Notes under the pieces: model-generated
What the model was told of the DNA's origin: nothing
The model's database searches: none
What the model saw: the letters and a program-made list of their open reading frames with translations, nothing else
In this document: positions 8,321 through 11,697 of the stretch, piece after piece
How the letters are laid out: each line of letters starts with the position of its first letter
How positions within the stretch are numbered: position 1 is the first letter of the stretch
Translations under genes and position numbers: made by a program
Source: a virus
Reading direction: 5' to 3' (one strand)
DNA length: 28,386 nt
Virus record (IMG/VR): IMGVR_UViG_3300050821_000071
Coordinates: 1 to 28,386 of that record

Positions 8321-9856
8321 TTAGAATGGTGACGCGGTTACGGACACTACGATAGTACCAGCAGAAGGTAGCTCATTAGGACGTAGCAAAATATCTGCGG
8401 CACCGGTTTGAGGACTGACATCGCTTCGAATGAACAGGGGAATATTCACATACTGTACTCCTGGAATGTTGTACAGAGCAGAGAACACAGCACTGATAGG
8501 AACTCTCGCTGCAATAGTTGCGTTAGCTGTGGAGAACAGATTCTGAATAGCTTGTGTAGCAGCGATCTGAATAGAAGTGGGATTGTATCTAGAGCTGCAT
8601 GTGATCTGTACTGGAGATGAGTTGTTTCCCACATTGATTGGAATGATAGACGCTGCTGCACAGGTGACTACTGTTCCAGCTAGAGCACGAGCCTGTAGAT
8701 AAGCAGTGGTGCTGTCAATCAATGTCTGAGAAGGAAGCGTATTACCAGTAGCTGCGATATACACAGTGACATTGGAGTATGTGTTGGCTACAGCATTGGC
8801 CTGAGAAATGGAAGCAAGCTGTAGAGCCAGGTTCCCATAATCAGCCAGTGTTACTGCTCTCTGCTGTGTAGTAAAGCTCTTAGGAGCATTCATACGTATG
8901 TGATCAATGGTCTCTGCATCTGCTCCACCTGTCATAGAGGAGGAACCAGAGATGGTCACTCCCAGAATAGGAGAAGCGATATCCACAATGGAGTTAGCGG
9001 ATAGGTTGCCAATGACTCCACCACCTACACGGTAGTTGGCGTAGATAGCCAGTCCTGCTGGTGGAATCTGACCATTAATATTGTCACCGAAATTAATAGT
9101 GGCTACACCAGATGCGTTTACTGTCTCTGACCAGGAAGGATCAGATGATTGTGCAGACTGTAGAGATGCCACCTGGTTCCAGGGAATAATAGGATCAGAT
9201 CCTGGAATGGCAGGAAAGTTAGGATTCTGTACGTAGATAGTAATAGATCCGGTTACTACTGGATTGTTAGCCAGATTGAATGCTTGTAGGGGAGCACCAG
9301 TAGAAGTACCTAGAAGCTCAGTAGTAATTGCTGTAGGAGTTGCTGTTGCATTTCCAATAGTAAATACAGCAGAGCCTTGAGTGATTCCCTGAACAACTGG
9401 AATAGCAAGAGTTCCACCATTACCTGGAACAGTTGCAGCAGAGGTTGTCTCAAAGATAAGAGGACCGTTGATAGAACTGATGAAGTTTGTTGTCACCTGT
9501 GTTGCAGCAGGAACAATAACCGCAGCAGATCCAGGAGCAGTCTGTAGAGTGACTGTACCTGTGGATGCGATAGGCTGTCCTGCTGTATATCCTAGAAGGG
9601 TTGCCAGGTTGAGAACAGACTGTAGCTGAGTGGCTGTACCGATGTATGCCTCTCCTACGAGACGGTCTCCGTAGTAGCTCAGTACGTCAAGCTCTCTGGA
9701 CAACGCTTCCAGGATCATGACTTCAAGTGCACCAGGATTCTGATTGGTCCATTCAGGAAATGCAACAGCAGCATAAGCCAGCATTGCATTCAAGAACCCT
9801 GTGTAGTCCTTACCCGTATAGTCAATTGCGGGTACGCCTGCACTAACTTGTGCCAT
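8321..9856 (-). CDS. Baseplate J-like wedge protein
   Basis: A 511-residue protein of the baseplate_J family (P2 J, Mu gp47, T4 gp6). Family marks are the N-terminal DYTGKDYTGFLNAMLAYA, the NPGALEVMILEALSRELDVL helix, a beta-rich middle, INFGDNINGQIPPAG at about 254-268, and the GGADAETIDHIRMNAPKSF segment at 310-328 followed by RAVTLADY. J forms the wedge ring that surrounds the hub and triggers sheath contraction. The ATG at 9856 lies inside the last codons of the homing endonuclease gene, which also supply its ribosome site (AGGAGGT, eight bases upstream). The gene appears intact despite that insertion. It normally follows the gp25 gene directly, and here it is separated only by the endonuclease gene. 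Confidence 0.92.
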   Translation of the reverse strand: MAQVSAGVPAIDYTGKDYTGFLNAMLAYAAVAFPEWTNQNPGALEVMILEALSRELDVLSYYGDRLVGEAYIGTATQLQSVLNLATLLGYTAGQPIASTGTVTLQTAPGSAAVIVPAATQVTTNFISSINGPLIFETTSAATVPGNGGTLAIPVVQGITQGSAVFTIGNATATPTAITTELLGTSTGAPLQAFNLANNPVVTGSITIYVQNPNFPAIPGSDPIIPWNQVASLQSAQSSDPSWSETVNASGVATINFGDNINGQIPPAGLAIYANYRVGGGVIGNLSANSIVDIASPILGVTISGSSSMTGGADAETIDHIRMNAPKSFTTQQRAVTLADYGNLALQLASISQANAVANTYSNVTVYIAATGNTLPSQTLIDSTTAYLQARALAGTVVTCAAASIIPINVGNNSSPVQITCSSRYNPTSIQIAATQAIQNLFSTANATIAARVPISAVFSALYNIPGVQYVNIPLFIRSDVSPQTGAADILLRPNELPSAGTIVVSVTASPF

Positions 9857-9869
9857 TTGGTGTTACCTC
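9843..9869 (-). repeat. 27-bp direct repeat, copy B (endonuclease end / J start)
   Basis: Encodes the last eight codons and stop of the homing endonuclease and contains the J start codon. It matches the last eight codons and stop of gp25 (copy A, 10406-10432) at 23 of 27 bases. All four differences are at third codon positions, so both proteins end EVTPNGTS. Confidence 0.85.
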
Positions 9870-10343
9870 CTGCTGTCTACGTCTATCATTAGCTGCTGCT
9901 CTACATTTCTTGCAATACCTTATGTTATTCCACATATATGTATTTTCCTCAGTGTACTCATGACCATTTTTACAATGCGTCTTTTTAATACTTAGTGCTC
10001 TAGCTTCTTCTAGAGCTAGAAGTTCATCGATACGTGCTTGACGACGACTTAGCATCCATGGACGTATGGCTAACATGACTTCTTTAGCGTCTTCCATGCG
10101 ACGAATAGTAAAACACCACTGAGGCTTATGATGTTCTTTACCCTTTTTATAGGGACCACGTACAGAACCTACACCTAGAATATTATGCAGTCTAATAAGA
10201 ACATCTTCATCAGTCATATTACAAGTTATAGATAGCTGGTAACCGCCACCTGTTTTAGTTCTTTTACTAGTACTAAAACAACCTTCACCTTCCAGTAACC
10301 CAGCAACCCAGGCCAAATTTTCAGGTGTCCAATTTTTATTCAT
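9843..10343 (-). CDS. LAGLIDADG-type homing endonuclease with C-terminal zinc motif
   Basis: A 166-residue protein. LAWVAGLLEGEGCF at residues 10-23 is a LAGLIDADG helix with its acidic catalytic residue in the EGEG turn. The following strands (YQLSITCNM, GSVRGPYKKG, QWCFTIRRMEDAKEVM) fit the family core. Only one such motif is present, so the enzyme should act as a dimer. Residues 124-147 form a probable zinc site (C124, H128, C144, C147; HCKNGHEY ... YCKKC), as in DNA-binding ends of phage-borne endonucleases. Such enzymes cut an uninterrupted allele so that their gene is copied into it. It lies between gp25 and J. Its last eight residues, EVTPNGTS, are identical to those of gp25. AAGGAG precedes the ATG. 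Confidence 0.88.
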   Translation of the reverse strand: MNKNWTPENLAWVAGLLEGEGCFSTSKRTKTGGGYQLSITCNMTDEDVLIRLHNILGVGSVRGPYKKGKEHHKPQWCFTIRRMEDAKEVMLAIRPWMLSRRQARIDELLALEEARALSIKKTHCKNGHEYTEENTYMWNNIRYCKKCRAAANDRRRQQEVTPNGTS

Positions 10344-10371
10344 AGTATCTCCTTAATAGTTAGTACTATGA
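10340..10371 (-). promoter_or_regulatory. Hairpin enclosing the start of the LAGLIDADG gene
   Basis: An 8-bp inverted repeat, TCATAGTA and TACTATGA on the minus strand, with a 16-base loop. The ATG start codon lies in the 3' arm and the AAGGAG ribosome site lies in the loop. Folding would hide the start codon and limit translation of the endonuclease. The stem is AT-rich and weak, so this is a suggestion rather than a firm element. Confidence 0.4.
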
Positions 10372-10405
10372 TATCAAAAATATAGAGTAACTTATTCCAC
10401 CATTA

Positions 10406-10432
10406 TTAACTTGTACCATTAGGTGTTACTTC
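10406..10432 (-). repeat. 27-bp direct repeat, copy A (gp25 end)
   Basis: The last eight codons and stop of gp25, repeated at 9843-9869. It contains an ATG (10419) at the position equivalent to the J start, followed by a short reading frame beginning MVQV (J begins MAQV). This suggests that gp25 and J once overlapped here. Confidence 0.85.
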
Positions 10433-10825
10433 TGTGACAGTTCCGCCTACTTGAATAGTTACAATGTCAGCCACAGATCGAGCCAGAGATCCTTGAAGGA
10501 TAGGCTGGTAGTTAACTGCGATGGATGCTACTCCACCATTGATCTCGGACATGTTCGGAGTAACAGATACAGCCTTGACACCTGGCTCAAACAGTGATAG
10601 CTGCTTGTCTACCATGGTTGCCAACTCGGCTGCGATGATTGTACTCCCTGTTTGGAATAGAAGTTGGGACAGTGGAAGTCCCATATTGGAACGCATTGCA
10701 CGTCCACCTTGTTCAGTGGACACAATGGCGTTAACCCTCTGGGCCACTTGCACAGAGGGATCTGACTCTACGGATACCGCACCATTCTCAAGAACAGCGA
10801 ACGGTATTGACATTTGAATTCCCAT
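10406..10825 (-). CDS. Baseplate wedge protein, gp25/gpW-like
   Basis: A 139-residue protein with the gp25-like pattern: SIPFAVLENGAVSVESDPSV at the N-terminus, then VQVAQRVNAIVSTEQGGRAM, SNMGLPLSQLLFQTG, and LFEPGVKAVSVTPNMSE. This family is related to T4 gp25 and P2 W and forms the collar of the wedge that contacts the first sheath ring. Two ATGs are possible: 10825 (MGIQMSIPF) and 10813 (MSIPF). The second has GGGAA five bases before it and is equally plausible. It sits between the spike gene and, ancestrally, J, the usual order in myoviruses. The C-terminus EVTPNGTS is duplicated in the neighbouring endonuclease gene. Confidence 0.9.
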   Translation of the reverse strand: MGIQMSIPFAVLENGAVSVESDPSVQVAQRVNAIVSTEQGGRAMRSNMGLPLSQLLFQTGSTIIAAELATMVDKQLSLFEPGVKAVSVTPNMSEINGGVASIAVNYQPILQGSLARSVADIVTIQVGGTVTEVTPNGTS

Positions 10826-10842
10826 ATATTTATTATCCCATA

Positions 10843-11697
10843 CTAGCTAATGGTACCTAGTGGAACATGACCCCAAATCAAATATTGTGTGCTATTTTCA
10901 ACAGGAACTCCAGAGGCGGAGAACAGGTTAATATTTCCAGAAGTAGAAATATACGCATGACCCATCTTCACTATCGTTCCGTTGTAAGACTGAACTGATA
11001 CAGGAATAGATCCATCCAAAGGACGGTACAGAGGTGGAAGCATTGCTACAGGATTGGTAGCTCCTGATGATGAGGAGATGAAGCCTCCGTAGATGAGCAA
11101 GTTGTCATTAGCATCAAGACGAAACTGTAGCTGTTGATATCCTCCAAGGCCATTGAAGGTGGTATTACCGCTCCAGCCGGTTGTGTATCCGGGTAATTGC
11201 CAGGTGTATTTTGTACCTGTGTTATTGGTTTTGATAACCGTACCTGACACAAGTACGTCTGCTGCGGAAGTTCCCAACATATCTTGAATCTTCAGGTAAG
11301 GACCGCTGGTTCCTGTAATCTGTCCACCTAAACCAGATACGAAATAGGTACCTAAAGCATCTACCAAAGATCCTGTGGTCTTGGTAATGATCTGCATGAA
11401 GGAACTGTCAGACGATAGTTGTAGATATGCGTTATTGCTCAGATAGAACGGCTTGGTTATATCTCCACCAGAAAAGCCGAGCCAAACCGTAGCGCCTATG
11501 AAAGGCACCGGATCATATGGATTAGCTGGCTCCGCTGCTCTGATCTCTACTGTCCCAGCGATCTGAGGACATTGAACTCTTATACGTCCAGTGCCTGTGG
11601 GATCAACGTTGGATGTAACCAGCGCACGATAGAACGCATCGTACTTAGGTTGCGTAAATGTTGGCTCCAAGGTTGGATGACCTCCAAACTCCACCAA
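10843..11697 (-). CDS. Baseplate central spike, gp5/gpV-like OB fold with extra C-terminal beta domain
   Basis: Up to 284 residues. Residues 20-90 match the OB-fold of T4 gp5, gpV and VgrG spikes (YRALVTSNVDPTGTGRIRVQ, then PFIGATVWLGFSGGDITKPF). This part docks on the hub at the tail tip. Instead of a long beta-helical needle or lysozyme, the C-terminus (about 170-284) looks like a small jelly-roll: YQQLQFRLDANDNLLIYGGF, then MLPPLYRPLDGSIPV. It resembles receptor-binding ends of other phage tail proteins. The start is uncertain. The listed TTG at 11697 gives a 53-base overlap with the hub gene; a GTG at 11694 and a TTG at 11670, the latter nine bases after GGAGGT, are alternatives. Spike identity is well supported; the role of the C-domain is inference. 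Confidence 0.82.
   Translation of the reverse strand: MVEFGGHPTLEPTFTQPKYDAFYRALVTSNVDPTGTGRIRVQCPQIAGTVEIRAAEPANPYDPVPFIGATVWLGFSGGDITKPFYLSNNAYLQLSSDSSFMQIITKTTGSLVDALGTYFVSGLGGQITGTSGPYLKIQDMLGTSAADVLVSGTVIKTNNTGTKYTWQLPGYTTGWSGNTTFNGLGGYQQLQFRLDANDNLLIYGGFISSSSGATNPVAMLPPLYRPLDGSIPVSVQSYNGTIVKMGHAYISTSGNINLFSASGVPVENSTQYLIWGHVPLGTIS

What the first reader, a model, noticed from the sequence alone, without database searches (positions are those of the whole stretch)
9843..10432. LAGLIDADG endonuclease gene inserted at a gp25/J overlap and flanked by a 27-bp duplication
gp25 and the endonuclease both end EVTPNGTS, encoded by 23/27 identical bases with all differences at third positions. The second copy also contains the J start and gives J a better ribosome site (AGGAGGT) than copy A could. 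The first copy keeps a vestigial ATG followed by MVQV, matching MAQV of J. This suggests gp25 and J once overlapped and the element arrived with, or created, a duplicate that keeps both genes whole. It is a neat way for a selfish gene to sit in an essential overlapping operon.
Basis: partly seen in the sequence, partly recalled or inferred. Interest (0 to 1): 0.6.

Follow-up and report, generated by a model that had tools for sequence, protein, structure and literature searches.

The report
Endonuclease gene duplicating its neighbours' junction
A selfish DNA-cutting gene sits exactly where two essential phage tail genes normally overlap, and a copied stretch of that junction on either side of it keeps both genes whole; at least four other phages carrying relatives of this enzyme show the same trick at other genes.

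Summary
gp25 and the endonuclease both end EVTPNGTS. The two 27-bp copies match at 23 positions, all four differences are synonymous third positions, and none of 300 shuffles reached 23. Copy B is therefore the ancestral junction, and the endonuclease now overlaps J by the same 14 nt. Copy A is the substitute gp25 tail; it lost the ribosome site and keeps a dead J start whose next codons (VNNG) match another lineage (L044), suggesting foreign origin. The protein is a single-motif LAGLIDADG nuclease with a Cys/His zinc-finger-like tail. Among 128 distinct relatives I found further cases: ThyX C-terminus (L315), DNA polymerase C-terminus (L207), an upstream gene's C-terminus (L143), ThyX N-terminus (L102/L103), plus weaker ones. 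Such terminus capture is known for fungal mitochondrial endonuclease genes; I found no phage description. Best reading: homing repaired by homology on one side only, carrying in a spare gene end.

The parts
10406..10825 (-). gp25-like baseplate wedge gene, 139 aa, ending EVTPNGTS
   Evidence: Pfam GPW_gp25 above cutoff; PHROG 43
10406..10432 (-). copy A of the junction: substitute gp25 tail, ribosome site lost (AGAAGT)
   Evidence: 23/27 to copy B
10366..10419 (-). dead J start left in copy A: MVQVNNGGISYSIFLIS*; bases 10395-10407 match the L044 J start at 11/13
10344..10405 (-). AT-rich leader of the endonuclease gene with AAGGAG; start codon in a predicted hairpin
9843..10343 (-). free-standing single-motif LAGLIDADG endonuclease gene, 166 aa
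   Evidence: Pfam LAGLIDADG_1, profile to solved LAGLIDADG enzymes, model and fold match to I-CvuI/I-CreI
10281..10310 (-). LAGLIDADG motif WVAGLLEGEG
   Evidence: invariant columns in alignments A1 and A4
9903..9974 (-). Cys/His zinc-finger-like tail CKNGHEY...YCKKC
   Evidence: shared with phage HNH endonucleases
9843..9869 (-). copy B: ancestral gp25/J junction, now the endonuclease C-terminus and stop plus the J start
   Evidence: 24/27 to the empty junction of L001
9865..9871 (-). J ribosome site AGGAGGT, retained from the empty junction
   Evidence: GGAGGT at the same place in L001/L002
8321..9856 (-). baseplate J gene, 511 aa; overlaps the endonuclease by 14 nt, as gp25 overlaps J in relatives
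   Evidence: Pfam Baseplate_J; overlaps

Best explanation
A free-standing LAGLIDADG homing endonuclease gene invaded the overlapping gp25/J junction. The ancestral junction (a 14-nt overlap, with J's ribosome site inside gp25's last codons) survives as copy B. It now forms the endonuclease's own C-terminus and stop, and still starts J. gp25 lost that end and received a replacement end, copy A, which came in with the element. Inferred mechanism: the enzyme cuts at or near the junction of an empty phage during mixed infection; the gp25 side is repaired by homology with a donor carrying gp25 tail plus endonuclease, and the J side is joined with little or no homology. The result is native gp25 body, donor gp25 tail (A), endonuclease, native tail (B), J. 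Shown: the insertion, the empty site, the duplication, which copy is ancestral, and recurrence in relatives. Inferred: cleavage, donor origin of copy A, one-sided repair.
For: Empty junctions in 32 distinct relatives, 25 overlapping by 8-14 nt, none with the gene. Closest relative has TEVTLNGAS*/MAQVSAGVPA with GGAGGT. Copy B matches it better than copy A does (24/27 and 12/15 beyond, against 21/27 and 5/15). Copy A continues into a different J start type, 11/13 to L044, P about 7e-4 under drift from B. LAGLIDADG fold. Same architecture in L315, L207, L143 and L102/L103, scattered over the family tree. In L315 and L102 the non-functional copies differ mostly at third positions and keep open frames, so the copies diverged under selection before they met.
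Against: No cleavage or homing data. The foreign origin of copy A in the window rests on 13 bases chosen after inspection and on small identity differences at the end of gp25. The enrichment in the family is modest (7/128 against 5/470, P 0.005, weaker at other cutoffs; not significant without the position rule), and one non-endonuclease gene shows the same pattern (L244). No second phage with this element at gp25/J was found.
Confidence: 0.72

Rival explanations
1. Local tandem duplication. The junction was copied by slippage or end repair at the break, the gene landed between the copies, and copy A then drifted at positions neutral for gp25 because it no longer served J.
For: All four differences are synonymous for gp25 and remove only J's signals, which drift under gp25 constraint also predicts.
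Against: The 13 bases after copy A match another J start type at 11/13 (P about 7e-4 under drift). In L315 and L102 the dead copies diverged under protein-level constraint, which local duplication does not explain.
Confidence: 0.22
2. Mirror image: copy A and gp25 are native, and the element brought copy B with the 5' end of J from an L001-like donor (N-terminal capture as in L102).
For: N-terminal capture does occur in the family (L102/L103).
Against: L001 is the nearest relative over J as a whole, over most of gp25 and over the gene after J, with no drop along J that would mark a foreign 5' tract.
Confidence: 0.12
3. Transposon-like target-site duplication of 27 bp by a staggered cut.
For: Two direct copies flank the gene.
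Against: Copy A ends 62 bp before the gene and copy B lies inside it; the copies differ at 4/27 and carry different continuations. LAGLIDADG enzymes make 4-nt overhangs (own knowledge).
Confidence: 0.02
4. Chance or convergence: two genes ending EVTPNGTS by accident.
For: Copy B is constrained by the J start.
Against: 23/27 is beyond 300 shuffles (max 21), and the same sequence is the ancestral junction in relatives.
Confidence: 0.01

Closest known systems
Mitochondrial mobile ORFs carrying a gene C-terminus (Allomyces macrogynus atp6; Glomus atp6, atp9, cox2, nad3; PMC3630166)
   Same: An endonuclease gene follows a foreign copy of the cut gene's C-terminus that is fused to the gene, and the displaced native C-terminus lies beyond the endonuclease; the copies differ mostly at synonymous positions.
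   Different: Phage rather than mitochondrion; inserted at two overlapping essential genes; the displaced end is reused as the endonuclease's C-terminus and the next gene's start signal; N-terminal capture also occurs in this family (L102/L103).
T4-type free-standing endonuclease genes (seg and mob genes; PMC2988022)
   Same: Not in an intron, sits between conserved phage genes, overlaps a neighbour, start codon in a predicted hairpin.
   Different: Those are GIY-YIG or HNH enzymes and the review contains no word for duplication; no duplicated gene end is described there.
Mycobacterium phage BaboJay gp90
   Same: Related LAGLIDADG gene in an actinophage, its frame overlapping the next gene.
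   Different: It splits the RNA ligase gene in two (intact in Filch and many others) with no duplicated end found.
Single-motif LAGLIDADG homodimers I-CreI, I-CvuI, I-MsoI
   Same: Fold and motif; one motif per chain.
   Different: Those are encoded in group I introns; this gene is not in a detectable intron and has an extra zinc-finger-like tail.

Membership tests
LAGLIDADG endonucleases | LAGLIDADG motif and fold | tested here: met
   Pfam LAGLIDADG_1 28.9 bits against cutoff 23.1; profile E 1.5e-10 to I-HjeMI; Foldseek E 5e-6 to I-CvuI
LAGLIDADG endonucleases | site-specific double-strand cleavage | not testable with these tools
   needs the purified protein; acidic motif residues EGEG are present
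Free-standing homing endonuclease gene | own start, not in an intron or intein | tested here: met
   own ATG and ribosome site; neighbours not interrupted; no Rfam intron match
Free-standing homing endonuclease gene | present at a site that is empty in relatives | tested here: met
   32 distinct empty junctions
Free-standing homing endonuclease gene | inherited preferentially in mixed infection | not testable with these tools
   needs a cross
Terminus-capturing endonuclease gene (Allomyces/Glomus type) | gene end duplicated on both sides of the endonuclease gene, upstream gene left whole | tested here: met
   copies A and B, both neighbours whole
Terminus-capturing endonuclease gene (Allomyces/Glomus type) | the displaced copy resembles the close relative; the fused copy is foreign | tested here: inconclusive
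   copy B is closest to L001; copy A resembles L044/L037 but over a short stretch
Transposon-type target-site duplication | identical short repeats flush with the element ends made by a staggered cut | tested here: not met
   copy A ends 62 bp before the gene, copy B lies inside it, and the copies differ at 4/27

The most novel reading that the evidence does not exclude
Terminus capture is a regular way for phage LAGLIDADG genes to invade essential genes without splicing. Homing is repaired by homology on one side only, so the element carries in a spare foreign end of the gene it cuts. Here, at overlapping genes, the displaced native end is recycled as the endonuclease's own C-terminus and the next gene's start signal.
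Probability: 0.55. Interest if true: 0.7.

Novelty: new variant of a known kind. Interest (0 to 1): 0.56.

Why it matters
Free-standing homing endonuclease genes have no splicing to hide behind, and how they settle in packed phage operons with overlapping essential genes is poorly explained. This case and at least four other independent ones show a concrete solution: an extra copy of the cut gene's end arrives with the element. It predicts where the enzymes cut, gives a sequence signature for finding more, and suggests that these elements can swap gene ends between phages. It extends to phages a mechanism described in fungal mitochondria.

Tried and rejected
Group I intron or other known RNA over 9600-10900: no Rfam match at E<=1. 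Transposon-type target-site duplication: rejected by position and divergence. A translated search for flanking duplications was too noisy in GC-rich loci, so DNA-level tests were used. The version without a position rule was not significant (P about 0.1); the version requiring copies next to the gene is. L101/L327 12-mer TACGGCAGCCGA: read as chance, different frames. L160 and L117: not convincing. L011 matched only the zinc-finger tail. Twenty-six bacterial genome loci gave no further capture case. A scan for other VNNG J starts found only L044. Searches for a published phage precedent found none in the open library; subscription papers are not covered.

Full report
Observation. The three genes lie on the minus strand as described: gp25 10406-10825, endonuclease 9843-10343, J 8321-9856. 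The 27-bp copies (A 10406-10432, B 9843-9869; start spacing 563 bp) share 23 positions; the four differences are all synonymous third positions. In 300 dinucleotide-preserving shuffles of the 701-bp region the best 27-mer match was 21. The window is an IMG/VR virus fragment whose annotated relatives are Streptomyces phages BRock, GiJojo, Alone3, LuckySocke and pSt2308.

Empty sites. Viral contigs gave two gp25 relatives and 44 J loci; annotated phages gave more. Among 32 distinct gp25/J junctions, 18 overlap by 14 nt, 7 by 8 nt, 3 by 1 nt, and 4 are 2-15 nt apart; none has the endonuclease. The closest, L001/L002 (80% aa in J, 68% in gp25), reads ACGGAGGTAACACTAAATGGCGCAAGTTAG: gp25 ends TEVTLNGAS* while J starts MAQVSAGVPA. 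It also shows that the good ribosome site was there before the insertion. Copy B kept it and copy A (AGAAGT) lost it. The endonuclease now overlaps J by exactly the 14 nt by which gp25 overlaps J in relatives.

Which copy is old. Copy B matches L001 at 24/27 and its J continuation at 12/15; copy A matches L001 at 21/27 and 5/15. After copy A the sequence continues GTTAATAATGGTG, a J start of the VNNG type found in L044 (11/13 over the 13 bases after the repeat). In simulation, drift from copy B reaches such a match to any of the 32 junctions with P 7e-4, random sequence with 3e-4. Those 13 bases were chosen after inspection, so this is moderate evidence. L001 is the nearest relative over J, most of gp25 and the gene after J, but over the last 19 gp25 codons L037 (79%), L035 (75%) and L057 (74%) exceed L001 (70%). 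Copy A is therefore probably a donor tail; this is inference.

The enzyme. Pfam LAGLIDADG_1 matches above its cutoff, and a family profile hits I-HjeMI and I-CvuI. The AlphaFold model (mean pLDDT 92) matches I-CvuI, I-CreI and I-MsoI. There is one motif, so a homodimer is expected. A Cys/His tail like those of phage HNH enzymes follows. The captured residues at the very end have the lowest confidence in the model, as expected for a tail kept for J's sake. No intron was found. The gene has its own AAGGAG site under a modest predicted hairpin (z -2.7; not significant in a longer fold), reminiscent of T4 endonuclease hairpins (PMC2988022).

Recurrence. I collected relatives of the enzyme from viral contigs and tested the DNA on both sides of 128 distinct genes for copies lying next to the gene, with 470 other ORFs as control. 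Clear cases: L315, a complete ThyX (Pfam Thy1), then the endonuclease gene, then a displaced ThyX C-terminus of 50 codons without its own gene start; L207, DNA polymerase A, endonuclease, then FPYLADVSIGHTWGDL again; L143, where as in the window the endonuclease itself ends in the upstream gene's tail (DQPLPIDVPLLN, 7 synonymous and 0 non-synonymous codon changes); and L102/L103, a truncated 46-codon ThyX N-terminus upstream and a whole ThyX downstream, with L250 carrying a similar remnant further upstream. L119, L141 and L111 are weaker. At score 16 or more the counts are 7/128 against 5/470 (P 0.005); at other cutoffs P is 0.01-0.06, and without the position rule the difference is not significant. 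In L315 and L102 the non-functional copies differ from the functional ones mainly at third positions and keep open frames, so the copies diverged under selection in different genomes before they were brought together. The cases are scattered over the family tree. Related genes in BaboJay and L101 instead simply split an RNA ligase.

Mechanism. I propose a cut at the junction, repair by homology on the side where donor and recipient gene are alike, and joining with little homology on the other. The homologous side carries in a spare gene end, and the native end is left beyond the element. Homology upstream gives C-terminal capture (window, L315, L207, L143); homology downstream gives N-terminal capture (L102/L103).

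Known or new. C-terminal capture by endonuclease genes is described in fungal mitochondria (PMC3630166, which cites the Allomyces atp6 case). I found no phage description in the open library. I class this as a new variant of a known kind: a phage setting, overlapping essential genes, and reuse of the displaced end as the endonuclease's C-terminus and J's start signal.

Noticed in passing
L244:3250-3645: A 131-aa Cys-rich gene that is not an endonuclease is flanked by a 43/46 repeat of the upstream gene's C-terminus (VEMVKRTIEERR), so terminus duplication may not be limited to endonuclease genes.
   Followed up: partly
window 10325-10384: Predicted hairpin with the endonuclease start codon in the stem and AAGGAG in the loop, z -2.7 on 60 nt, not significant on 121 nt.
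   Followed up: partly
L035, L036/L067, L053, L056 gp25/J junctions: Four relatives have gp25 and J separated by 2-15 nt without any endonuclease, so the overlap has been undone several times by small changes.
   Followed up: no
L078:2444-3464 (Rhizobium phage RHph_N3_13): An endonuclease relative sits directly before a thyX that is only about 25% identical to the thyX at the same place in RHph_I3_11, as if the whole gene had been swapped with it.
   Followed up: partly
L315, L102, L078, L105: Endonuclease relatives next to thyX genes group together on the tree, which hints at a thyX-targeting subgroup.
   Followed up: partly
L119:2055-3105: A short array of paralogous small genes starting MIEEPT; the endonuclease gene lies inside it after a truncated copy.
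   Followed up: no
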